Positions 1-16,109 of a DNA stretch of 17,937 bases are shown here, in pieces. Location: positions 1 to 17,937 of the forward strand of contig JAUYMQ010000139.1 of the NCBI GenBank assembly GCA_030698575.1, in the 5' to 3' direction. Positions within the stretch are counted from its first letter, which is position 1. The number at the start of each line of letters is the position of its first letter. This DNA is from Deltaproteobacteria bacterium (lineage in GTDB: Bacteria > JAUYMQ01). The notes under the pieces are model-generated. The model did no database searches. It worked only from the letters and a program-made list of their open reading frames with translations, and was not told where the DNA came from. Position numbers and translations under genes: made by a program.

Positions 1-149
1 GCCGGCAACGCCTTGAGCTGGGCGACCCGCTGATACAGCGCGTCGAGCTCAACCCGGCAGACGGCGCAGGTCGTGATGTGCTGCCGCGCCCATACCGATG
101 CTTCTCCGGCGCGCAGCGCTCCCAGATCATCCATCGTACAGTGCATCAT
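1..149 (-). CDS. Putative zinc-finger anti-sigma factor, N-terminal part (cut by window edge)
   Basis: The first 49 codons of a gene that continues past the left window edge. The reading starts at tandem ATG codons (149-144) and overlaps the stop of the ECF sigma gene by 4 bases (ATGA), so the two are translationally coupled. The short N-terminal region contains HITTCAVC, that is H-x3-C-x2-C, the zinc-binding signature of zf-HC2 anti-sigma domains, which bind and inactivate a cognate ECF sigma factor. The membrane or sensor part expected downstream is outside the window. The position directly after a sigma factor agrees with this role. Seen: the HCC motif and the overlap. Inferred: the anti-sigma function. 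Confidence 0.72.
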   Translation of the reverse strand, partial: MMHCTMDDLGALRAGEASVWARQHITTCAVCRVELDALYQRVAQLKALP

Positions 150-682
150 GCGCGTGCTTCCCCTCCTTCATCCAACAGCCGCCGCAGCCGCACATGCGCG
201 CGGGCCAGCTGCGACTTTGAAAAGCTCACCGATTTGCCCATCTGCTCCGCGATTTCCTCGTGCGTGAAGCCTTCGACATCGTGCAGCCAGACCACGGCGC
301 GGGACGTGTCCGACAGGTGCTCCAACGCCCGCTCCAGATCGAGATTCGCAGCGATGTGCATGCCCGGCTTCCCCGGCTCATCATCGAGCGGCGCCATGGT
401 CCGCAGCTGCTCCCGGCGGATCTTCATCAGGGCCTTGGTCGAGGCGATCCGGCGGATCCAGCCCCACAGATGCCCTTCCCCGCGGTATTGGCGAATGCTC
501 CGGACGATCTCGAGGAACGTCTCCTGCAGCACGTCCTCGGCGTCCTCCGGTTTTCGCAGCATGCGCCGGGCGAGGTTGTAGACGGGCGTCTCGAAGGCGC
601 GATACAGCGCCTCGAGAGCAGCTTCATCACCCGCCTGCGCGCGCGCGATGAGGACATCCGGAACGGCGAGAGCCACGGTCAT
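146..682 (-). CDS. RNA polymerase ECF-type sigma factor
   Basis: A 178-residue protein with both domains of an extracytoplasmic-function sigma factor. Region 2 (about residues 22-90) carries the core-binding, -10-reading motif DVLQETF (50-56) followed by WGWIRRIA. Region 4 (about 117-170) has the helix-turn-helix series LERALEHLSDTSRAVVWL and FTHEEIAEQMG, which reads the -35 element. The length is typical of the family. It is co-transcribed with the anti-sigma gene that overlaps its stop codon. The ATG at 682-680 is used; the ribosome binding site ahead of it is weak. The regulated genes are unknown. The divergent neighbour is an iron transporter, but nothing in the sequence proves a regulatory link. 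Confidence 0.93.
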   Translation of the reverse strand: MTVALAVPDVLIARAQAGDEAALEALYRAFETPVYNLARRMLRKPEDAEDVLQETFLEIVRSIRQYRGEGHLWGWIRRIASTKALMKIRREQLRTMAPLDDEPGKPGMHIAANLDLERALEHLSDTSRAVVWLHDVEGFTHEEIAEQMGKSVSFSKSQLARAHVRLRRLLDEGGEARA

Positions 683-730
683 CTGTCCGAAAGGTAAGAT
701 GCGATGGTAACCCGGAGGGTCGCACCAAAC

Positions 731-802
731 GGGGAATGGGGAGTGGGGAATGGGACCTCATGGTGTGGACTGATCGTACGATCGTACCACTCCCCATTCC
801 CC
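731..802. repeat. Inverted repeat with G-quadruplex motif between divergent genes
   Basis: Two perfect 16-base arms, GGGGAATGGGGAGTGG (731-746) and its complement (787-802), enclose about 40 bases. The left side continues as G4-N3-G4-N3-G4-N3-G3 (731-754), which fits the canonical quadruplex pattern on the plus strand. Just inside the right arm, GATCGTAC occurs twice in tandem (772-787), giving overlapping palindromes. The element fills the intergenic space between the ECF sigma gene and the mbfA-like gene. It could act as a terminator-like structure or be a dispersed genomic repeat. Confidence 0.75.
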
Positions 803-857
803 ATTCCCTAAGTAATTACCCAGTAGGAAGTTGAATGGCATCGCGATATCTTGCAGC

Positions 858-1964
858 ATGCCCAAACCCGACGTGCAGGAGTGGCTGCACCATTGGCAGG
901 ACGAAGCCGACGCCGCCTACCTCTATCTCGCTTTGGCAGGTCAGGAGACGGATCCCCATAAGAAGGATGTCTACGTCAAGCTGGCGGGCGTCGAGGAGCG
1001 CCACGTCCAGATGTGGGAGAAGCTGCTGGCGGGTCACGGTCATCGTACCGGCCCCGCGCGCCCCTCCACCAATGCCCGGCTCCGGGCGTGGTTCGGGCGG
1101 CGATTCGGGACCCGCTACCTGCTGCCGCTGCTGCTGCGCGAAGAGGGCCAGGAAGTCAAAGGCTACCTCAACCTGCATCAGGCATCGCGCCTCCCTGACG
1201 CCCAGGAAGTGTCGCTGCAGCTCGCCAAGGAATCGGCGGCGCACGCGGAGACGCTGGCCGGTCTGTCGGGCCGGGGGAGCGAGCCGTGGCACAAGACGGG
1301 CTCGGGAGGGTTTCTCCGCAACGTCGTCTACGGGTTCAACGACGGGCTGACCGCCAACTTCGGGCTCGTCGCCGGCGTGATCGGCGCCGCGGTGGAGCCG
1401 CATATCATCCTGATCTCGGGCGTCGCGGGCTCGATCGCCGATGCCTTGTCGATGGGCGCCTCCGGCTACCTCGCGGCCAAGAGTGAACAGGAAGTCAATG
1501 CGCACGAGATCGCGATGGAGAAGGAAGAAATCCGTCTGATGCCCGAGCTCGAGGTCGAAGAGCTGAACCTCGTGTATCAGGCGAAGGGGGTGGACCCCCG
1601 GACGGCGCGCCGGATGGCCGAAGAAGTGATGCGCGATCCGCAGCGGGCGCTGGACGAGCAGGTGCGCGAGGAGCTGAAGATCGGCGAGGCGCACGCGACG
1701 CCGTTCAAGGAGGGCTGGATCACGGGATCGGCGACGGCGGTCGGCGCGTTCATCCCCGTCGCGCCGTTCCTGGTGTTCGAGGGCCGCGTGGCGATGTGGA
1801 TCGCGTTCACCATCGCGATGCTGTCCCACTTCGCGGTGGGAGCGGCGCGCAGCTTCTTTACCGGCCGCGGGATCCTGCGCAGCGGGTTCGACATGTTCGT
1901 GGTGGGACTGGGGGTTGCGGCCGTCGGCTACGTCGTGGGGGATGTGATCGCCCGGATCCTGTAA
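858..1964 (+). CDS. mbfA: Ferritin-like/VIT1-CCC1 family membrane iron transporter (MbfA/erritin-Vit1 type)
   Basis: About 368 residues from the ATG at 858; a TTG at 831 would add nine residues and lies directly after AGGAAG. The N-terminal third (residues 1-150) is a ferritin/rubrerythrin-like helical domain with plausible metal ligands E16, E46 and H49 (EERH) and a later KESAAHAE segment. The C-terminal part is a VIT1/CCC1 domain beginning NVVYGFNDGLTANFGLVAG, then ISGVAGSIADALSMGASGYLAAKSE, a cytoplasmic Glu-rich loop (AMEKEEIRLMPELEVEEL), and two or three more hydrophobic segments ending in VVGLGVAAVGYVVGDVIARIL. Proteins of this architecture (MbfA) export iron across the inner membrane. 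It is divergent from the sigma factor and convergent with leuS, with one base between the two stop codons. Confidence 0.87.
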   Translation: MPKPDVQEWLHHWQDEADAAYLYLALAGQETDPHKKDVYVKLAGVEERHVQMWEKLLAGHGHRTGPARPSTNARLRAWFGRRFGTRYLLPLLLREEGQEVKGYLNLHQASRLPDAQEVSLQLAKESAAHAETLAGLSGRGSEPWHKTGSGGFLRNVVYGFNDGLTANFGLVAGVIGAAVEPHIILISGVAGSIADALSMGASGYLAAKSEQEVNAHEIAMEKEEIRLMPELEVEELNLVYQAKGVDPRTARRMAEEVMRDPQRALDEQVREELKIGEAHATPFKEGWITGSATAVGAFIPVAPFLVFEGRVAMWIAFTIAMLSHFAVGAARSFFTGRGILRSGFDMFVVGLGVAAVGYVVGDVIARIL

Positions 1965-1965
1965 C

Positions 1966-4365
1966 TCACACCACCAGGTTCACCAGCCGGTCCTGGACGT
2001 AGATCACCTTTTTCACCGGCTGTCCGTCCACGAACTTCCGCACCGCCCCATCGGCCATGACGCGCTCGAGCACCTGCCGCTCCGAGGTGCCGCGCGGCAC
2101 GACGAGCCGCGAGCGCAGCTTCCCGTTGACCTGCACGGCGATCTCGACGTCGCCCGACGTCGCCAGGCGCTCGTCGTACGACGGCCACCGCTGCGCGAAG
2201 ATCGTCCGGCCCTCGCCCCCGAGGACGCGCCACAGCTCCTCGGCGATGTGCGGTGCATAGGGCGCGAGCATGATGATCAGTGGCTTCATCTGCTCCCTGC
2301 TCCCCGCTCCCTGCTCCCGCAGCTCGTTCACGTACTCCATCATCGCGGCGATCGCCGTGTTGTATTGCAGCGCCTCGGTGTCCGCGGACACTTTGCGGAT
2401 CGTCTGATGGAGCTTGCGCTCGACGGCCGGCGGCGCGGCGCCGCCGTCACGGGCTTCGTGCGCGAGCGTCCAGACCTTCTCGAGAAAACGCCGGATCCCG
2501 ATGATGCCCTCGTCGCGGAAGTCTCCGCCTTCCTGAAACGGGCCGAGGAACATGAGGTACATGCGGAACGTGTCGGCGCCCCACTGCTGGATGTAGGCGT
2601 CGGGAATGACCACGTTGCCGCGCGACTTCGACATCTTCGCGCCGTCTTTCACGATCAGGCCGTGGGCGCGGAACCTGGGGAACGGCGTGTCGAAGCCCAC
2701 ATGCCCGAGGTCGTGGAGCACCATGGTGATGAAGCGCGAATACAACAGGTGCAGCACGGCGTGCTCGTTGCCTCCGATATAGCTGCTCACCGGCAGCCAC
2801 GTCTTGGTCCGGTTCTTGTCGAATGGCCGGTCGCCGAACTCGGTCGACGGGTAGCGGAGGAAGTACCAGGCCGAATCGAGGAACGTGTCCGACACATCGG
2901 TTTCGCGCCGCCCCTGCCCGCCGCACTCGGGACACTTCACGAAGTACCACTCCTCGTGGCGGGCGAGCGGGCTGACGCCCGTATCGTCGGGCCGGAAGTC
3001 TTCGATGAACGGCAGGACGACCGGCAGGTCTTTCTCCGGGACCGCGACGGGACCGCAGCGCTCGCAGTGGATGATGGGAATGGGCGGCCCCCAGTAGCGC
3101 TGCCGCGAGATGCACCAGTCGTGCAGACGGTATTGCACGCGCACGGCGGCGCTGCCGCGCTCGGCCAGCCACTCGACGATCCGTGTCCCTCCCTCCCGGC
3201 ACGGCAGGCCGTCGAACGCGCCCGAGTGCATCAGCACCCCGTCGGCGGACACGCTGGGGAGCGACTCCCCCCCCTTCTCCCCCGCGACGACCTGGCGGAT
3301 GGGAAGCTGGAACTGGGTGGCGAACTCGTGGTCCCGCTTGTCGTGCGCCGGCACGGCCATGATCGCGCCGGTCCCGTATTCCATGAGCACGTAATCGGCG
3401 ATCCAGATGGGGATGGACTCGCCGGTCGCGGGATTGCGGGCATAGCTGCCGCTGAACACCCCCGTCTTGACCTTCTCCCCGACTTTGCGCGACACGATGT
3501 CCTTGCCCTGCACCGAGCGCAGGTAGGCCTTCACGGCGCTGCGCTGCTCGTCCGCGGTGACCGATTCCACGAGCGGATGCTCGGGTGCGAGCACGAGGTA
3601 CGTGGCGCCGAACAGCGTGTCGGGCCGGGTGGTGAAGACCGTGATCTTCCGGCCGGCGGGCGTCTCGAAGACGATCTCCGCCCCCTCGCTCCGGCCGATC
3701 CAGTTGCGCTGGAGCTGCGCGGTGGAGGACGACCAATCGATCGTGTCGAGATTCGCGAGGAGGCGCTCGGCGTATTTCGTGATCGCGAAAAACCACTGCT
3801 CCAGATAGCGCTGCTCGACTTTGACGTCGGGGTGGCGCTCGCAGTAGCCGTCGATCACCTGCTCGTTGGCGAGCACGGTCTTGCAGGCCGGGCACCAGTT
3901 CACCGCGGCGCGCTTGCGCACCGCCAGCCCCGCCTTGAAGAGCTGGAGGAAAAGCCACTGCGTCCACTTGTAGTAGCCGGGATCGGTCGTCGAGACCTCG
4001 TGGCGCCAGTCGAACATGCCGCCGAACCGCTTCAGCTGGCGCCGGAACGTCTCGATGTTCTGCGGGATCAGCCGCGCGGGATGCGTGCCGACGGTGAGCG
4101 CGTAGTTCTCGGAATGGATGCCGAAGGCGTCGAATCCGATCGGCTCGAAGACGTCGAATCCCTGCAGGCGCTTGAAGCGGCCGTAGATGTCCGCGCCGGT
4201 GAACGCGAACATGTTGCCGACGTGCAGCCCCTCGGCCGAGGGGTAGGGGAACATCATGAGGTTGTAGAACGGCCGCGCCGGCACATCGAGGTCGGGTTCG
4301 TTGGTGTGGTGATCCGCCCACTGCGCCTGCCAGCGGGCTTCGACGGCCGCGGGATCGTACGTCAT
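1966..4365 (-). CDS. leuS: Leucyl-tRNA synthetase
   Basis: A 799-residue class I aminoacyl-tRNA synthetase that charges tRNA-Leu with leucine in the cytoplasm. The HIGH box is HVGN (48-51), in context PYPSAEGLHVGNMFAFTGAD. The active-site segment is FDAFGIHSENYAL instead of the more common WDAFGLPAENYA. A zinc-finger-like set C158-x2-C161 and C175-x2-H178 follows. The editing domain has TTRPDTLFGATYLVLAPEHPL, and the catalytic loop is KMSKS (577-581). The ATG at 4365-4363 begins MTYDPAAVEARWQAQW, as expected. The length is near the lower end for bacterial LeuRS. One oddity is a G-rich repeat read through as REQGAGSREQ in the C-terminal helical domain, reported separately. Confidence 0.97.
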   Translation of the reverse strand: MTYDPAAVEARWQAQWADHHTNEPDLDVPARPFYNLMMFPYPSAEGLHVGNMFAFTGADIYGRFKRLQGFDVFEPIGFDAFGIHSENYALTVGTHPARLIPQNIETFRRQLKRFGGMFDWRHEVSTTDPGYYKWTQWLFLQLFKAGLAVRKRAAVNWCPACKTVLANEQVIDGYCERHPDVKVEQRYLEQWFFAITKYAERLLANLDTIDWSSSTAQLQRNWIGRSEGAEIVFETPAGRKITVFTTRPDTLFGATYLVLAPEHPLVESVTADEQRSAVKAYLRSVQGKDIVSRKVGEKVKTGVFSGSYARNPATGESIPIWIADYVLMEYGTGAIMAVPAHDKRDHEFATQFQLPIRQVVAGEKGGESLPSVSADGVLMHSGAFDGLPCREGGTRIVEWLAERGSAAVRVQYRLHDWCISRQRYWGPPIPIIHCERCGPVAVPEKDLPVVLPFIEDFRPDDTGVSPLARHEEWYFVKCPECGGQGRRETDVSDTFLDSAWYFLRYPSTEFGDRPFDKNRTKTWLPVSSYIGGNEHAVLHLLYSRFITMVLHDLGHVGFDTPFPRFRAHGLIVKDGAKMSKSRGNVVIPDAYIQQWGADTFRMYLMFLGPFQEGGDFRDEGIIGIRRFLEKVWTLAHEARDGGAAPPAVERKLHQTIRKVSADTEALQYNTAIAAMMEYVNELREQGAGSREQMKPLIIMLAPYAPHIAEELWRVLGGEGRTIFAQRWPSYDERLATSGDVEIAVQVNGKLRSRLVVPRGTSERQVLERVMADGAVRKFVDGQPVKKVIYVQDRLVNLVV
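2290..2320 (-). repeat. G-rich tandem repeat inside leuS coding sequence
   Basis: On the coding (minus) strand this reads as G3-tracts separated by AGCA, AGC and AGCA, a near-perfect repeat of a 7-base GGGAGCA unit. It fits a four-tract quadruplex pattern and encodes REQGAGSREQ between the conserved NTAIAAMMEYVNEL and KPLIIMLAPYAPHIAEELW segments, so it sits in a tolerant loop. Confidence 0.7.
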
Positions 4366-6989: not shown

Positions 6990-7304
6990 CTATTTAGCAC
7001 GTCCCAGAGCCTTAACGAGCGCTTCGTGAAGTTTCGGCACGGATTCAACTGCTGTCGTCCAAACCACGTCATTGTCCGTCGCCCAATAGTGATGCGCAAT
7101 CCGGTCGCGCATTCGGACCATTGGTGACCACTCGATTTCCGGGAGGTCATCCTCAATAGACGGATCCGCTTCCAGTGCTGATTTGGCAGCTTCACCAATC
7201 ACCACAATTTGGTAGAGGATGGCATCGCGAAGGGTCTGATCGCTATCGAAGGCTTTGCGACCGCGGTCGCATAGGTCTGAATCATCTGGGCGGCCGTTAG
7301 ACAA
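6990..7304 (-). CDS. hepT: HepT-like ribonuclease toxin (HEPN domain, DUF86)
   Basis: A 104-residue HEPN-domain protein. The catalytic signature R-x4-H-x-Y is RDRIAHHY (residues 66-73), preceded by the conserved helix AILYQIVVIGEAAK. HepT proteins are RNases that are neutralised when the partner MntA adds AMP to the tyrosine of this motif, here Y73. The start is a TTG (7304-7302) inside the end of mntA, overlapping by 8 bases; no in-frame ATG lies nearby. The first helix appears about ten residues shorter than in typical family members (DDSDLCDRGRKAFDSDQTL), so the N-terminus may be eroded. Base composition is lower in GC than in the flanking chromosome, which fits acquisition by transfer. 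Confidence 0.85.
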   Translation of the reverse strand: MSNGRPDDSDLCDRGRKAFDSDQTLRDAILYQIVVIGEAAKSALEADPSIEDDLPEIEWSPMVRMRDRIAHHYWATDNDVVWTTAVESVPKLHEALVKALGRAK

Positions 7305-7590
7305 GCATCGACTCGCGCATAGCCGTCGATCTGATCGGCTCTCTGAGGCCGTTTATCGTGACGACGTCGACTGGATGACCGAGTAGTTCCTCGAGCCGCA
7401 GTTCCAATCGCGCCAAGTCCAGCAGTGATCTACCAGGCTTCAGCGAGACGAGGAAGTCTATATCGCTGCGCTCGTCTTCCTCCCCTCGGGCGACAGAGCC
7501 AAACACACGTATGTCCACAGCGCCGCTGGCGAGCGCGGTGCTTCGGATTGCTTCTCTCAGCTCCTTGAGTCGATCAAGCAACCGCATCAT
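7297..7590 (-). CDS. mntA: MntA-type minimal nucleotidyltransferase antitoxin
   Basis: A 97-residue DNA polymerase beta-like nucleotidyltransferase. The active site is GSVARGEEDERSDIDFLV: G31-S32, then D43 and D45, the GSx10DxD pattern of MNT antitoxins. These enzymes transfer AMP to the HepT toxin and so block its RNase activity (type VII toxin-antitoxin). It starts at tandem ATGs (7590-7585) and ends inside hepT, as expected for a coupled antitoxin-first operon. The upstream region holds a near-palindrome (7596-7612) that could be an operator. Confidence 0.9.
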   Translation of the reverse strand: MMRLLDRLKELREAIRSTALASGAVDIRVFGSVARGEEDERSDIDFLVSLKPGRSLLDLARLELRLEELLGHPVDVVTINGLREPIRSTAMRESMLV

Positions 7591-9220: not shown

Positions 9221-9523
9221 GCTCCGCGCGCGTTCCACAAGAAGCCTAAAGGTGAGTTTGCTGGTCCGTGAGGAGGCGGTCGTGCTGATCCCTGCGACTG
9301 GCGACTCAGGCGCGGCTGTCGCGCCTTCGATCCGGCATGTGGCTATCGGCGTGCACCATGAAGCAGAGGATTGCAGTGGAATTGCCGCAAATCCACCCCT
9401 TCGTGCCGCAAAAACACCCTAACGCTGTCACGTGGCGGCCCCATCTTCGCAGCTGGAGCTGCGAGGTCCGGGTCGTTTAACACCTGTAGTGGGCCTTCAC
9501 TTCCGGGAACGGACGAGATCCGC

Positions 9524-11737
9524 ATGCTGCCAGATGGCTTGCCCCACCTACGAATTTCAACGGCTCTGGCACGCAGCGAAGCTGTCGTCGTGCGGGGGGG
9601 TGGCGATACGTACACCCGTGAAGACGTTGCCGCTCATAGTCGAGCCCTGCGAGCCGCCTTCGGGCGATCCCTCCAGAACTTTGAGGGAAAGTTAGACGCT
9701 GACCTGGCTGCTGACCTGATAGTGCAGGTGACCACAAGCCCCGGTAGATCCGCAGCAAAAGAGCGCCAACACCTGAAGAATCTAGGCTTTGAAATCGTTT
9801 CGCTGAGTTCCAGCGAATCCAATGTTGCCGTCGCAAGGATCAGCCGAGACCTCATCCCAAGGCTTGCTCAGAAGCTCGATCGATATGCCGACTCTAGTCG
9901 GCATATCGGCAAGACCAACTTCGCCGCTATCGAATCATTAACGCCCGTCTCCGTAGAACGAAAGATTGAACCAGGTCTTGCGGATGCGGCGAGAGAACAG
10001 GCTGTAAACTGCCTAGTAACGCTGTATGCATCACTTCCTACAGAGATGAAGGCGACCGTCGCAACCAGAATAGCTGGAGGTCTTCGAGAAAGAGGGAAGA
10101 GGGAAGTTGCTACCTACTCGTACGCGAACGGAATAGTGGGTATCGCCGCCACTCTAACGAGAGCTGAGATGACGGAAATAGGCGAACAATACATGTTTGT
10201 TCGATCATTCGAAAACAACACTGAGGTTGTCTCAGAAGCAGCGATTCAGGCTGATCCCGTTCCTGCAATAATACAAATTGAGCACGTGCAGTGCGAAATG
10301 CCGGCTGTTGTCGTTGATTCGGGCATCAATGGCAACTGCTCGTTGCTCGCGGGATTGGTGCTGAGAACTATTAATGAATTGCCTCAAGGGACCGCGGGCC
10401 CGCACGCAGCTCACGGGACGTTTATAGCCAGCCGGGTGATCTACGGCGACGACATTACCACTGTGCTGAACCACCGAGCGCTCCCTTGGTGCCCGGTCAT
10501 CGATGTTCAAGTCACGGGCATGGATAATGTTGGAAATCGGGTCTTTCACACGCCAGCAAAACTTGGGGAGATACTTCAAAGGGTCGTTCCCACGATAGCG
10601 AGTCAATCCAAGGTCGTAAATCTCTCTCTAGGGACGAATCCCATTGCAGAGGGACAATACTCTACGCTCGCACGACTGATAGACTTTCTGTCTCGCGAGC
10701 ACAAGGTACTGTTCATCATCTCTGCCGGAAACATTCAGAATCCGACCGCGAATCCTCCAGCACATTACCTGGACTCAAATAGCAGAATCCTTTCTCCCAG
10801 CGAGGCCCTACTGGCTCTCACCGTGGGCTCGATCGCACGTTTTTGTCAAGAGAATTGTGTAGCCCGCGAACGGGAGATCAGCCCTTTTTCGCGGAGGGGC
10901 CCGGGAGCAGACCGAGCATTAAAGCCTGAACTGGCCATGCATGGCGGCAACGTGGCTTTCGATGGGATGGGTTGGACCACGACCCCGATCGTCGCTGCGT
11001 ACGGCCTCGATCGGGACGGTGCGCATCTCTCTTACAACACTGGGACAAGCTTCTCGGCGCCCCTGGTCGCTCAGTTTGCAGTTAGGTTGTTCGACGCATA
11101 CCGAGGTGCCAGCCCAAACCTGGTTCGCGGTCTCTTGTGTCATTTTGCCGAGCCGGTACGTACTCCGTCTCCCGGTGCTCCTGTGGCGGCTCACGATTTT
11201 TGTGGCTTCGGAGAGCCGCGAATCCAGAATGCGCTCTTTGCCACCAACCACTCGTCGGCATACCTGTTTGAGGGGGAGATCGAGAAGGATACCTATTTGT
11301 ACATCCCCTTCCATGTTCCTCAAGAGCTGGTGAATGACCCAGCGTCTCGACTTAGGATTCGCGGTACCGTGGTATTCGACCCCCCAGTGAGTGCGGATGA
11401 CTCTGTCAATTATTCCCTGTGCCGCGTAGCGGCGCGGCTGAGGAAACGCGTTCAAGGTGGTCTTCGAGAACAGGCCATCGGTGGTGATGAAGAGGATGCG
11501 CTTTACCCTTGGAATCCTCTCATCCACTTTGAACACTCCTTTAGGCGCGGTTACGCCTCGGGTGAATGGGAACTTCGCCTAAGACTAATGACCCGTGGCG
11601 ACTTGGAGGCGGGCTTTCGACAGAGTGTTGCGGCGGTCATCGAGATCGTTGATGAAAGCGGCAGTGTTGATGTTCGAAACGCAATTCAGAACGAGGCGCC
11701 CGTTTTTGCACCGGTCCAACTTAGATTCGCGGCGTAA
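9524..11737 (+). CDS. Subtilisin-like (S8) serine protease, IetS-like
   Basis: 737 residues from the ATG at 9524, chosen because it begins MLPDGLPHLRIS, matching the PHL-type start of large S8 proteases that pair with an AAA ATPase; a TTG at 9371 would add 51 low-quality residues. The catalytic triad is D265 (VVVDSG), H297 (AAHGTF) and S511 (NTGTSFSAP), with oxyanion N403 (IISAGN). An N-terminal domain of about 250 residues and a beta-rich C-terminal domain flank the catalytic core. There is no signal peptide, so it acts in the cytoplasm. The layout resembles IetS, the protease of the IetAS toxin-antitoxin/anti-phage pair, but no IetA-like ATPase gene is present on either side. GC is visibly lower than in neighbouring genes, suggesting transfer. 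The protease assignment is firm; the IetS link is by architecture only. Confidence 0.9.
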   Translation: MLPDGLPHLRISTALARSEAVVVRGGGDTYTREDVAAHSRALRAAFGRSLQNFEGKLDADLAADLIVQVTTSPGRSAAKERQHLKNLGFEIVSLSSSESNVAVARISRDLIPRLAQKLDRYADSSRHIGKTNFAAIESLTPVSVERKIEPGLADAAREQAVNCLVTLYASLPTEMKATVATRIAGGLRERGKREVATYSYANGIVGIAATLTRAEMTEIGEQYMFVRSFENNTEVVSEAAIQADPVPAIIQIEHVQCEMPAVVVDSGINGNCSLLAGLVLRTINELPQGTAGPHAAHGTFIASRVIYGDDITTVLNHRALPWCPVIDVQVTGMDNVGNRVFHTPAKLGEILQRVVPTIASQSKVVNLSLGTNPIAEGQYSTLARLIDFLSREHKVLFIISAGNIQNPTANPPAHYLDSNSRILSPSEALLALTVGSIARFCQENCVAREREISPFSRRGPGADRALKPELAMHGGNVAFDGMGWTTTPIVAAYGLDRDGAHLSYNTGTSFSAPLVAQFAVRLFDAYRGASPNLVRGLLCHFAEPVRTPSPGAPVAAHDFCGFGEPRIQNALFATNHSSAYLFEGEIEKDTYLYIPFHVPQELVNDPASRLRIRGTVVFDPPVSADDSVNYSLCRVAARLRKRVQGGLREQAIGGDEEDALYPWNPLIHFEHSFRRGYASGEWELRLRLMTRGDLEAGFRQSVAAVIEIVDESGSVDVRNAIQNEAPVFAPVQLRFAA

Positions 11738-12495: not shown

Positions 12496-13746
12496 ATGAT
12501 CTCCTTCCCCAAGCGTGAGCGCGCCCACCATGCCGCGGCCTGCGTCGGCGTCGATGCCGGCAAGTTCTCCCACACGTTGGTCGTCCGTCCGCAGCACCAG
12601 CCTGATTCCAAGCCGTTCAGCTTTCCGACCACCCGCAGCGGGTTTGACACGGCGGTCGCCTTCATCCGGCAACAAGTCCCGGGCGCCGCGGCTACGACGA
12701 TCCTCGTCGGCATCGAGTTCGCCGGGAACTACGGCTTCACCTTCGCCCACTACCTCGCCCAGCTCGGCTTCCCGATCGTGAGCGTGCTCCCCGCGCATAC
12801 GAAGCGCTGGAAGGACGTCGCGCACAACCAGCCCCTGAAGACCGACGCGAAAGACGCCGGCACCATCACCGATCTCTTGGCCCAGGGGCACTTCGTCACC
12901 TTCCCGTTCCTGTCGCCCGCGTACGCCGATCTGCGCTACCTGGTCACGGCACGGGAGCGACTCTCGCTGCTCCGCCGCGGGGCGATCACGCAGCTCCGCA
13001 CGCTGATCCAGGTGGTCTTCCCCGAGTTCGAGGCCCTCTTTCCGCTCATCGCCAAGAAGACGCCGTTCACCGTGCTCCGGACCTTCCCGACGCCCCAGGA
13101 CCTGCTCGACGCCACGAGGACCAAATTGCTGCGCGTCCTGAAGACCGCCAGCCGCGGCCACCTCGGCGCCGAGACCTACGACAAACTCGTCGCGGCGGCC
13201 CGGGCCACCCTCGGGCTCCCCGGCGCCCAAGCCCGCCTCCGACAAGAGATCCTGCTCACCCTCGAGCGGATCGCGTTGTTCGAGCGGCAGATCAAGGCCC
13301 TCGAGACCGAGCTCGTGGAAGCCCTCCAGGCCGTCCCGGAGACGCCGTATCTCCTGAGCATCCCCAAGGTCGCGCCCGTGACCGCCGCTGTCTTCCTCGG
13401 CTCGATCGGCGACCCGCGCGCCTATGAGGCGGGGGAGCAGATCCTTCGGGTCGCTGGCCTCTCGCTGATCGAGCGCTCGAGCGGCGTGCTCCGGGGCACG
13501 AAGCGCATCTCCAAACGCGGGCGGCCGCTGCTGCGCCAGGCCGCCTACATGTTCGCGGTCCGCAGCATCACGAAGGGCAGCCTCTTCCGCGCCGAGTACG
13601 ACGCCCTCTGCCGGCGCAACGGGGGCGTCAAAATGAAAGCCGTGGTCGCCGTGATGCGCTCCGGGCTGCGGCTGCTGTACAGCATCGCCCGCGATCGGCG
13701 GCTGTTCACCATCGCGCCGCCGGCCGTGCGGCGGGTGGCGGCATGA
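12496..13746 (+). CDS. tnpA: IS110 family transposase (RNA-guided DEDD recombinase)
   Basis: 416 residues. The N-terminal RuvC-like DEDD domain has D20 (VGVDAGK), E73 (VGIEFAGNYG), D116 and D119 (KTDAKDAG). The C-terminal Transposase_20 domain contains IPKVAPVTAAVFLGSIGDP and GLSLIERSSGVLRGTKRISKRG, with the nucleophile at S327 or S328. All residues needed for activity are present, and the frame is intact to the TGA at 13744-13746. These enzymes insert the element with the help of a bridge RNA that pairs with target and donor DNA. AGGGGG four bases ahead of the ATG is a ribosome binding site partly hidden in a hairpin. High GC matches the host. Confidence 0.96.
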   Translation: MISFPKRERAHHAAACVGVDAGKFSHTLVVRPQHQPDSKPFSFPTTRSGFDTAVAFIRQQVPGAAATTILVGIEFAGNYGFTFAHYLAQLGFPIVSVLPAHTKRWKDVAHNQPLKTDAKDAGTITDLLAQGHFVTFPFLSPAYADLRYLVTARERLSLLRRGAITQLRTLIQVVFPEFEALFPLIAKKTPFTVLRTFPTPQDLLDATRTKLLRVLKTASRGHLGAETYDKLVAAARATLGLPGAQARLRQEILLTLERIALFERQIKALETELVEALQAVPETPYLLSIPKVAPVTAAVFLGSIGDPRAYEAGEQILRVAGLSLIERSSGVLRGTKRISKRGRPLLRQAAYMFAVRSITKGSLFRAEYDALCRRNGGVKMKAVVAVMRSGLRLLYSIARDRRLFTIAPPAVRRVAA

Positions 13747-14218
13747 TCTGAGCTGACGGCAGTTCGGCTGGCCGGCCGGGACGACGGAGCCCGTTGTGAG
13801 TCGAGGCAGCCTCTGGGCTGGCCTCCCATGTGCCAGTGGCTCCCCCGGCCGAGCGTCCGCTTGAGTCTCCGATAACGGGGTGTCGAGGGTCGCGCTCCGC
13901 GAGGAACGCCACGCCTCCGAGTTGGGCTAGGATCGAGCTACGCGGCGCGCGCCGGTCGCTGCTCTTTGAAAACTGTTGGAATCAATTGAGCCTTGGGCCC
14001 GGCGCGGATCCGCGCTGTGAGCTGCGGCGTGCTCACGCATGGCCGCCGGCAAAACACTCGATCGCGACCGGGCCCAGCGGGCGGCTGTTGCGCGCTCCTG
14101 AGTTAGGGCCCGGCGCGGATCCGATAACCCATTGGACGGGCGCGTCGCGTGCCGCGTCCGACATGACACGTGATCGCGCCGACGCTACATGGGGCCCACC
14201 GCATAACGATTCTGCGTC
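13747..14218. other. Gene-free stretch right of IS110
   Basis: No credible gene; the open frames here lack start context and family features. It contains the right end of the IS110 element, the segment GCTCTTTGAAAACTG (about 13960), and two copies of an 18-base direct repeat (separate entry). Confidence 0.55.
13995..14123. repeat. 18-base direct repeat pair
   Basis: GGGCCCGGCGCGGATCCG occurs exactly at 13995-14012 and 14106-14123, 111 bases apart. It bounds a 93-base segment without a recognisable gene. It may mark an insertion or deletion product near the IS end. Confidence 0.7.
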
Positions 14219-14653
14219 CTAGGAGTGTGGAGAACCCGCAGAAGAAATCCGGGATGCGTCGAGACGTCTCCTAGGCAATTGGTGCAGGAGACCATACGTC
14301 AGAATCGCAATGATGAAAGGTGCGACTGCCGTCCTGCTGGTTACTAAGTCCCGCGCTGGCTGACCGGCCATGAACGCACCGAGGAACACGACCATTGAGA
14401 TGGCTCTCAGGAGAGCCGGATGCGAGCCCATCTGAGTACGTGATATCAGCATCATACTCAGGACTTGGGCGACGCATGCCAAGAGTGCCAGAGGCAGGCT
14501 GAGGATCAGTAAGAACACCAACCCGGAAGCTGAAGGTATTTCAGCACCCGTGGTAAAGTGATTTACCAGCGTGATTCCCCCGAGCCAAATGACGCCCAGG
14601 GCGGCAAGCGCCAGGAACAGATTAAACGCGAGTTGCTTCAGCACTCCACGCAT
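14219..14653 (-). CDS. Four-helix membrane protein, candidate RHS-toxin immunity protein
   Basis: 144 residues from the ATG at 14653, chosen because GGGAGGA stands seven bases ahead; the open frame extends 35 codons upstream without such a signal. Four hydrophobic segments are visible at about 8-30, 43-70, 80-97 and 108-125, with a short basic C-terminal tail (HQLPRRRLD). No family is recognised. It starts 23 bases after the stop of the RHS C-terminal fragment, on the same strand, exactly where the cognate immunity gene of a polymorphic toxin lies. If that holds, the toxin would act at or through the inner membrane. The immunity role is inferred from position alone. Confidence 0.6.
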   Translation of the reverse strand: MRGVLKQLAFNLFLALAALGVIWLGGITLVNHFTTGAEIPSASGLVFLLILSLPLALLACVAQVLSMMLISRTQMGSHPALLRAISMVVFLGAFMAGQPARDLVTSRTAVAPFIIAILTYGLLHQLPRRRLDASRISSAGSPHS

Positions 14654-14676
14654 TTGCGTTCCTCCCTGGGAAGCAC

Positions 14677-15216
14677 CTACGGATATTTCAAAGGTTTCCG
14701 AAAATCGAACAAGTCGATCGGAGACGATCCACCGTGTGGCGTGCCGATCAGTTGCCACTGACCACCGCGCATAACGTACGCCGCGTGAGCCGGGAACCTC
14801 GTTATCGATCCTGACATCGTGTAGCTTCCATTGGCGTCGGGAGTGAACGTCAACGAGCCGTTGATGTCAGGATTCGGTACGACGCCGGCGATCTTGGCAG
14901 AGTTTGTGAAATTGAAGTCAACACTGATCCCGCCGCCCGCGGCCGCCCTGGCGGTCATGTGGTTACCATCTGATGGTGCGTAACATCCTCCGCCGGCCGC
15001 AAAACATGACTCATTTGGAATGAAGAAGCTCGCGGAGGGCTGGGATGGCATCAAATACATCTGCGCACGCGACTGATCTGGCGACGCATTAGCGTCAAAT
15101 GTCCGGCCATCCCCCTTCCAGATGAGAGTGGTTTTACCTTCAATGAAGAGGTCGACACAGATAGCGCCCTCACGTACCTTCTTCTCGCATAACCCGAACG
15201 GATCGGTAAAGGCTAC
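14677..15216 (-). pseudogene. RHS-family toxin C-terminal fragment
   Basis: An open frame of 179 codons begins VAFTDPFGLC right after an in-frame TGA (15219-15217). TDPFGL is the motif that ends the RHS core and marks the junction with the variable toxin tip. After it come about 165 residues of tip domain, including CVDLFIEGKTTLIWKGDG, four later cysteines near ESCFAAGGGCYAP, and a beta-rich end with GSYTMSGSITRFPAHAAYV and LFDFRKPLKYP. Nothing of the RHS barrel remains upstream, and the first ATG is at 15060, so this is an orphan toxin tip or silent cassette, not a full toxin. The toxin activity is not recognised. Gene callers may report only 127 residues from 15060. Confidence 0.7.
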
Positions 15217-15422: not shown

Positions 15423-16109
15423 TTATGATGTGACCTCTTCAGGCGGATAGAGCACGCGCTTTGCGATGCCGTGAAGGATTGGGTCTTGAATGCCATGAAA
15501 ACTGAAGGCGCGGGAGCGCGCCTTCAGAAAGAGGAATACTTCTCGCCACGGCCACTGCTCGACCGCCAAAGCGTTGCGCGTTCTATGGCGCGGTGCCAGT
15601 CTCACCCGCTCCTGCTCTTTCCGGTACTGAATACCGACATCAAAACCGTCCCACCGGGGTGCCAACTCGACCGCAAGGTCAATGTCATTCACGCGCTCGG
15701 CATCGGTCAGGTAGCTGCCGAAAAGCACGACACGCTTGACGCGATAGGCGAACTCTTCGGATTGGTTGACCTGTTCGACACGCGCCATGAATTCGCGGAG
15801 CTTGCGCTCCGCCGTGGCGCGCCGGAGCGGGGCCGCAGCGGATGCTTGCGCGAAGCCGTTGCCTTCGTCCGTAAGCTCATACCACGGGCCAACCGCATGG
15901 TCCCCTGGGCCAATGACCACACGGGGTTCACGTAGCTGAGTCGGGTCACGGTAGAGCGTTCCGACTAGCCCTTTCGCGAGCAGCACCTCCAGCAATCCGG
16001 CGTCCCGAAAGTACCCGGCGACCACCGTCGCGCCCATGAACCTGAGCAGCAGGTCGCGGACCTTCATCACCGGCACGCCGGCGATCTTGTCGCGTGGATC
16101 AATGCGCAC
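15423..16109 (-). CDS. Winged-helix nucleotidyltransferase domain protein
   Basis: 228 residues from a GTG (16109-16107); an ATG at residue 15 is an alternative start. Residues about 13-85 look like a winged-helix DNA-binding domain (KVRDLLLRF...YELTDEGNGFAQAS). A linker helix (RRATAERKLREFMARVEQVN) then leads to a polymerase beta-type nucleotidyltransferase active site, VVLFGSYLTDAERVNDIDLAVEL, with G131-S132, D142 and D144. The C-terminal REVFLFLKARSRAFSFH resembles the conserved end of this group. Proteins with this build occur as stand-alone genes and as antitoxin-like partners of HEPN proteins. It is the last gene of a three-gene operon, 49 bases after the HEPN-like gene. Substrate unknown. 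Confidence 0.85.
   Translation of the reverse strand: MRIDPRDKIAGVPVMKVRDLLLRFMGATVVAGYFRDAGLLEVLLAKGLVGTLYRDPTQLREPRVVIGPGDHAVGPWYELTDEGNGFAQASAAAPLRRATAERKLREFMARVEQVNQSEEFAYRVKRVVLFGSYLTDAERVNDIDLAVELAPRWDGFDVGIQYRKEQERVRLAPRHRTRNALAVEQWPWREVFLFLKARSRAFSFHGIQDPILHGIAKRVLYPPEEVTS

What the first reader, a model, noticed from the sequence alone, without database searches (positions are those of the whole stretch)
14219..15216. Orphan RHS toxin tip with a membrane protein in the immunity position
TDPFGL starts a frame directly after a stop codon, with no RHS core upstream, followed by about 165 residues of variable tip. The next gene, 23 bases on, has a strong ribosome binding site and four membrane helices. 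This fits a displaced toxin/immunity cassette. The tip domain is not one I recognise, and a membrane immunity protein hints at a membrane-acting toxin.
Basis: partly seen in the sequence, partly recalled or inferred. Interest (0 to 1): 0.62.

Follow-up and report, generated by a model that had tools for sequence, protein, structure and literature searches.

The report
Orphan RHS tip with membrane partner
A bacterium known only from an assembled genome carries a broken-off tail of a giant RHS protein, probably a silent weapon against rival bacteria; the tail belongs to a protein family of unknown function (DUF3238-like) and is followed by a small membrane protein that may be its antidote.

Summary
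On the minus strand, VAFTDPFGL opens a 179-codon frame straight after a stop, with no start codon before residue 53, no RHS core upstream, and a 144-residue four-helix membrane gene 23 bases downstream. Relatives turned up in only one bacterial phylum. In one (G861) the same tip continues from a genuine RHS core end, with the core model ending exactly at DPFGL, and is again followed by a four-helix membrane gene. In other genomes the domain ends probable lipoproteins. A small membrane gene, or the remains of one, follows in 4 of 6 lineages; about 0.6% of genes in the phylum look like that. Best reading: a displaced, silent RHS tip/immunity cassette, probably acting at the cell envelope. Toxicity and immunity are inferred. 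No full-length RHS protein with this tip was found, the membrane partners are not clearly homologous to one another, and two lineages lack one. Ordinary in kind; new mainly as a lead to a role for DUF3238-like domains.

The parts
15190..15216 (-). Remnant of the RHS core seam, VAFTDPFGL, directly after a stop codon
   Evidence: Translation. Matches NNP-IAFSDPFGL at the end of the RHS core in G861
14677..15189 (-). Variable tip, a remote DUF3238-superfamily domain (conserved C..xFI, GDxRxF, SR), including the stop codon
   Evidence: Relatives; profile A3 hits 3c5p at E 3.4e-4; hhalign to DUF3238 E 2e-6; no usable start codon before residue 53
14219..14653 (-). 144-residue protein with four predicted membrane helices, candidate immunity protein; no family match
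   Evidence: Translation, hydropathy, weak all-helix single-sequence model; no Pfam, NCBIfam or PADLOC match
14659..14666 (-). Shine-Dalgarno-like GGGAGG upstream of the membrane gene (approximate position)
   Evidence: Sequence shown

Best explanation
This is a displaced 3' end of an rhs gene: the last nine residues of the core seam plus a DUF3238-like C-terminal domain, together with the gene that followed it, a small four-helix membrane protein. The tip lacks a start codon and a delivery module, so as it stands it should be silent (shown in sequence, not in expression). It could be revived only by being joined to an RHS core (inferred from Salmonella orphan rhs tips, PMC3967940). When delivered by an RHS protein, or by the lipoprotein that carries the same domain in relatives, the domain most likely harms rival cells at the envelope, that is in the periplasm or at the inner membrane, and the membrane protein most likely protects the producer there (both inferred from position, from helix content and from the lipoprotein fusions).
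For: Frame, missing start codon and 23-base spacing. RHS core ending exactly at the tip in G861, followed after 33 bases by a four-helix gene with GGAGG before its ATG. Membrane gene directly after the domain in G1006, and a half domain running in frame into membrane helices in G951. Only 2 of 327 genes in the phylum are 100-180 residues with at least three such helices. The domain ends probable lipoproteins in G1006, G778 and G867, with a lipobox-like LAGC in G778. Lower GC of the cassette and an IS110 transposase about 470 bases away fit mobility.
Against: No full-length RHS protein with this tip was found. G778 and G867/G1139 have no membrane gene behind the domain. The membrane partners are not clearly related (best pair 6 of 500 shuffles, the others indistinguishable from shuffles). 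Stand-alone DUF3238 proteins in Paenibacillus and Nostoc are not followed by a small membrane gene, so the domain need not be toxic. Only about 27 bases of core remain, too little for the kind of homologous recombination (522 bp) described in Salmonella (PMC3967940).
Confidence: 0.58

Rival explanations
1. The DUF3238-like domain is a surface-exposed binding or structural domain and not a toxin. RHS proteins and lipoproteins display it, and the membrane proteins behind it are export, anchoring or unrelated genes.
For: The domain is mostly beta strand in the weak model, DUF3238 occurs as stand-alone proteins without a membrane neighbour, and the lipoproteins seem to keep one architecture rather than many tips (small sample).
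Against: Position exactly behind the RHS seam, where variable toxins sit in characterised RHS proteins, and repeated small membrane genes directly downstream.
Confidence: 0.27
2. It is a dead remnant: a decayed rhs end beside an insertion sequence. The membrane gene may still be translated as an orphan immunity gene that protects against rivals with the toxin, while the tip is no longer used.
For: No start codon, no core and almost no core homology left; an IS110 transposase nearby; the D of the (R)D-[GEQ]-[YF]-P motif is missing in the window copy; a decayed, fused copy in G951.
Against: The tip frame is intact over 179 codons and the membrane gene is intact with a good ribosome binding site.
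Confidence: 0.35
3. The tip matches RHS by chance and is an ordinary unrelated frame.
For: TDPFGL is a short motif, and the looser [TSNVI]DPxGL appears in about 1 in 10 shuffled windows.
Against: The 158-residue match to G861 continues through the seam of a real RHS core.
Confidence: 0.02

Closest known systems
Orphan rhs-CT/rhsI modules of Salmonella and other Enterobacteriaceae (PMC3967940)
   Same: Displaced C-terminal piece that starts near DPxGL, without translation start, next to a small candidate immunity gene
   Different: Salmonella orphans sit downstream of a main rhs gene and share 522 bp with it; here only nine core residues remain, and no RHS gene is in the window (RHS repeats lie on other contigs of the assembly)
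DUF3238 (PF11579; structure 3c5p, BAS0735)
   Same: Remote sequence relationship over the whole domain, GDxRxF and DG[FY]P-type motifs, probable shared beta-rich fold
   Different: No Pfam hit at E up to 10 for the window copy, best member E 0.21. Known DUF3238 examples seen here are stand-alone
Tse5/Tsi5 of Pseudomonas aeruginosa (PMC9637101)
   Same: RHS tip with an integral membrane immunity protein
   Different: Tse5-CT is thought to be a helical pore-former and Tsi5 has two predicted helices; the tips here have no predicted membrane helix and the partner has four
SitA/SitI of myxobacteria (PMC5562445)
   Same: Lipoprotein carrying a C-terminal domain with a neighbouring gene in the immunity position resembles the G1006 version
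   Different: The SitA C-terminal domains studied there are nucleases, SitI1 being of the SUKH family; no sign of sitB or outer-membrane exchange was tested here

Membership tests
Orphan RHS tip/immunity module | Piece begins at or near the conserved DPxGL seam | tested here: met
Orphan RHS tip/immunity module | Same tip occurs at the end of an RHS core elsewhere | tested here: met
   G861, TIGR03696 E 1.5e-20 ending at the seam; the core there is a fragment, not full length
Orphan RHS tip/immunity module | No translation start for the piece | tested here: met
   First ATG/GTG/TTG at codon 53
Orphan RHS tip/immunity module | Linked immunity gene | tested here: inconclusive
   Small membrane gene in 4 of 6 lineages, absent in 2; protection cannot be tested by sequence
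Orphan RHS tip/immunity module | Enough core sequence left to recombine with a main rhs gene (common, not universal, so not a condition of membership) | tested here: not met
   Only nine core codons; upstream DNA no better than shuffles
DUF3238 (PF11579) | Match above the Pfam gathering score | tested here: not met
DUF3238 superfamily (remote relative) | Profile-level similarity over the domain | tested here: met
   3c5p the only PDB hit, E 3.4e-4, 3c5p is PF11579 at E 3.8e-88, hhalign E 2e-6, score 45 against at most 21 in 60 column shuffles
DUF3238 superfamily (remote relative) | Same fold | tested here: inconclusive
   Model of low confidence (pLDDT 49), yet 3c5p ranks first in Foldseek (E 7e-3) and VIA-align (Z 5.6, rmsd 4.4 over 131 residues)
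Pore-forming RHS tip (Tse5 type) | Membrane-spanning helices in the tip | tested here: not met
   No hydropathy segment in the tip-bearing frames of G861 and G1006
SitA-type lipoprotein toxin | Delivery by outer-membrane exchange | not testable with these tools
   No experiment possible; only the lipoprotein-like start was seen

The most novel reading that the evidence does not exclude
DUF3238-like domains are a so far unrecognised class of toxin that works at the cell envelope, carried as exchangeable tips by both RHS proteins and lipoproteins and neutralised by fast-evolving four-helix membrane proteins.
Probability: 0.35. Interest if true: 0.62.

Novelty: new member of a known kind. Interest (0 to 1): 0.42.

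Why it matters
DUF3238 has a solved structure but no known function, and a library search found no paper that mentions it. Finding its relatives at RHS tips next to small membrane genes makes a function testable in a simple growth assay. It also adds a case of an RHS cassette cut off so tightly at the seam that ordinary homologous recombination could hardly revive it.

Tried and rejected
Exact-peptide scans of genome contigs and viral contigs with P0001, and tblastn in plasmids and phages, found nothing. A degenerate DNA pattern guessed from memory of the motif gave four chance matches. Diverse genomes, 195 genomes of the phylum of G028 and 369 genomes of the class of G385 (locus titled Gammaproteobacteria) gave only chance-level hits, checked by reading the frames. 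The leucyl-tRNA synthetase was then used to find the right phylum, which gave the relatives. RHS-core remnants upstream of the tip were looked for and rejected. Relatives were not handed to structure prediction because its stated rule covers only the window and certain loci; the single-sequence models are therefore weak. Homology among the membrane partners was tested and not established. The phylum is not named by the tool; Gemmatimonadota is my guess from memory of the short LeuRS type and is not used as evidence.

Full report
What is there. The frame at 15216-14677 on the minus strand begins right after a TGA with V-A-F-T-D-P-F-G-L and runs for 179 codons. It has no ATG, GTG or TTG before codon 53, which lies inside the domain, so it cannot give the whole domain by itself. 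The next gene starts 23 bases later with GGGAGG before its ATG and encodes 144 residues with four predicted membrane helices. The two genes are 55.8% GC against 64.4% for the rest of the window. The 284 bases upstream of the tip hold no detectable RHS core DNA. RHS repeats do exist in the same assembly, on other contigs, but the tip itself occurs only once there.

Finding relatives. Pfam, NCBIfam and PHROGs gave nothing for the tip, nor did plasmids, phages, viral contigs or an exact-peptide scan of 84,980 genomes. The window's leucyl-tRNA synthetase is 82% identical to that of genome G060. A search of 395 genomes from the phylum of G060 gave four true relatives, and a profile search gave two more, from G778 and G951. 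A further search of 102 genomes of the family of G861 held no additional copy, so the domain is rare.

RHS link. In G861 a 313-codon frame reads ...RWYDPQTGRFLTQDPIGLAGGVNLYSYAGNNPIAFSDPFGLCPKDPGKICIAFFIQSKTTL.... Its first part matches the RHS-associated core model TIGR03696 (E 1.5e-20), and the match ends at the last model position and at DPFGL. The window's VAFTDPFGLCEKK...ICVDLFIEGKTTL aligns straight through this seam. This shows that the tip is an RHS tip. G861 is also only a core fragment, with a tRNA-Leu some 120 bases upstream of it, so it too may be displaced.

Second carrier. In G1006, G778 and G867/G1139 the same domain forms the C-terminus of proteins of about 476-533 residues that begin with a hydrophobic, lipoprotein-like segment, for example FMLAGCSD in G778. 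The domain is therefore used by two carriers.

What follows the domain. Window: four-helix gene after 23 bases. G861: four-helix gene of 134 residues after 33 bases, GGAGG before its ATG. G1006: gene of about 136 residues with four helices, start uncertain, about 72 bases on. G951: the first half of the domain runs in frame into a stretch with three or four helices, as if a deletion had fused tip and partner. G778 and G867/G1139: no such gene. In 400 kb of the same phylum only 2 of 327 called genes are 100-180 residues long with at least three such helices. Leaving out the window, which was chosen for this feature, and the G951 fragment, two of four lineages have one; with a rate of 0.6% this would be expected about twice in ten thousand trials. 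This is a rough figure from a small background sample. The partners share length and helix spacing but not clear sequence similarity: window against G861 beats all but 6 of 500 shuffles, the other pairs do not stand out.

What the domain is. The six-member profile hits one chain among 177,635 distinct PDB sequences, 3c5p (BAS0735), at E 3.4e-4 over most of the domain, with the GDxRxF, SR and D-G-[FY]-P positions aligned. The aligned part of 3c5p is a DUF3238 protein (PF11579, E 3.8e-88). Profile-profile comparison with three DUF3238 sequences gives E 2e-6 and score 45; 60 column-shuffled controls reach at most 21. A single-sequence model of the tip is poor (pLDDT 49) but mostly beta strand, and its best match by Foldseek and by VIA-align is again 3c5p. 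The model is too weak to stand alone, but it agrees. None of the sequences passes Pfam's cut-off for DUF3238, so I call it a remote relative and not a member.

How it may work. Shown: a start-less RHS tip with an intact membrane gene behind it. Known from others: orphan rhs tips in Salmonella lack start and export signals, are silent, and become active after recombination with the main rhs gene (PMC3967940); an RHS tip with a membrane immunity protein exists, Tse5/Tsi5 (PMC9637101); lipoprotein toxins with an immunity gene downstream exist in myxobacteria (PMC5562445). Inferred: that the tip is toxic, that the membrane protein is its antidote, and that the target is in the periplasm or at the inner membrane. 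The tip-bearing frames of G861 and G1006 lack membrane helices, which argues against a Tse5-like helical pore, so an action on a periplasmic or membrane component is more likely than pore formation. The chief rivals are a non-toxic binding domain and a dead remnant. The last is compatible with the main reading of origin: the cassette may be a true orphan and no longer used. The confidences given for these readings therefore overlap and do not add to one.

Verdict. The finding is real and its RHS reading is right; the immunity reading is plausible and better supported than before, but not universal. It is a known kind of arrangement, with an unrecognised tip family that ties a structure of unknown function to RHS proteins.

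Noticed in passing
window 6990-7590 (-): Adjacent nucleotidyltransferase (NTP_transf_2, E 9e-16) and HepT-like (E 6e-19) genes, a likely MntA/HepT-type toxin-antitoxin pair.
   Followed up: partly
window 9371-11737 (+): Subtilase that matches the IetS protein of the Iet defence system (PADLOC E 2.5e-75) with no obvious IetA ATPase gene beside it in the window.
   Followed up: partly
window 12496-13746 (+) and repeats at 13995 and 14106: IS110-family transposase followed by two copies of GGGCCCGGCGCGGATCCG between it and the cassette; possible insertion-sequence end or mobility scar.
   Followed up: no
window 15423-16109 (-): Protein with a weak nucleotidyltransferase match in its second half (Polbeta E 9e-4, MntA antitoxin model E 0.0045), just upstream of the tip; resembles a regulator fused to a nucleotidyltransferase.
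   Followed up: no
L052 (G861:C333) 2-894 (+): Open frame at the contig start that looks like the end of another RHS-type tip (my impression, no family match), followed by a soluble gene; with the DUF3238-like cassette 1.3 kb away this may be a small array of displaced tips.
   Followed up: no
L054 (G867) about 1950-3142: Behind the lipoprotein, what looks like a decayed copy and an intact copy of a secreted protein lie in tandem (similar reading frames), possibly duplicated immunity genes of another type.
   Followed up: no
G000:C545:3863-6337 and window 1966-4365: The assembly holds two different LeuRS genes (46% identity) and is not placed near any held phylum, so it may be a mixture of two organisms; RHS genes on other contigs need not belong to the window's host.
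   Followed up: no
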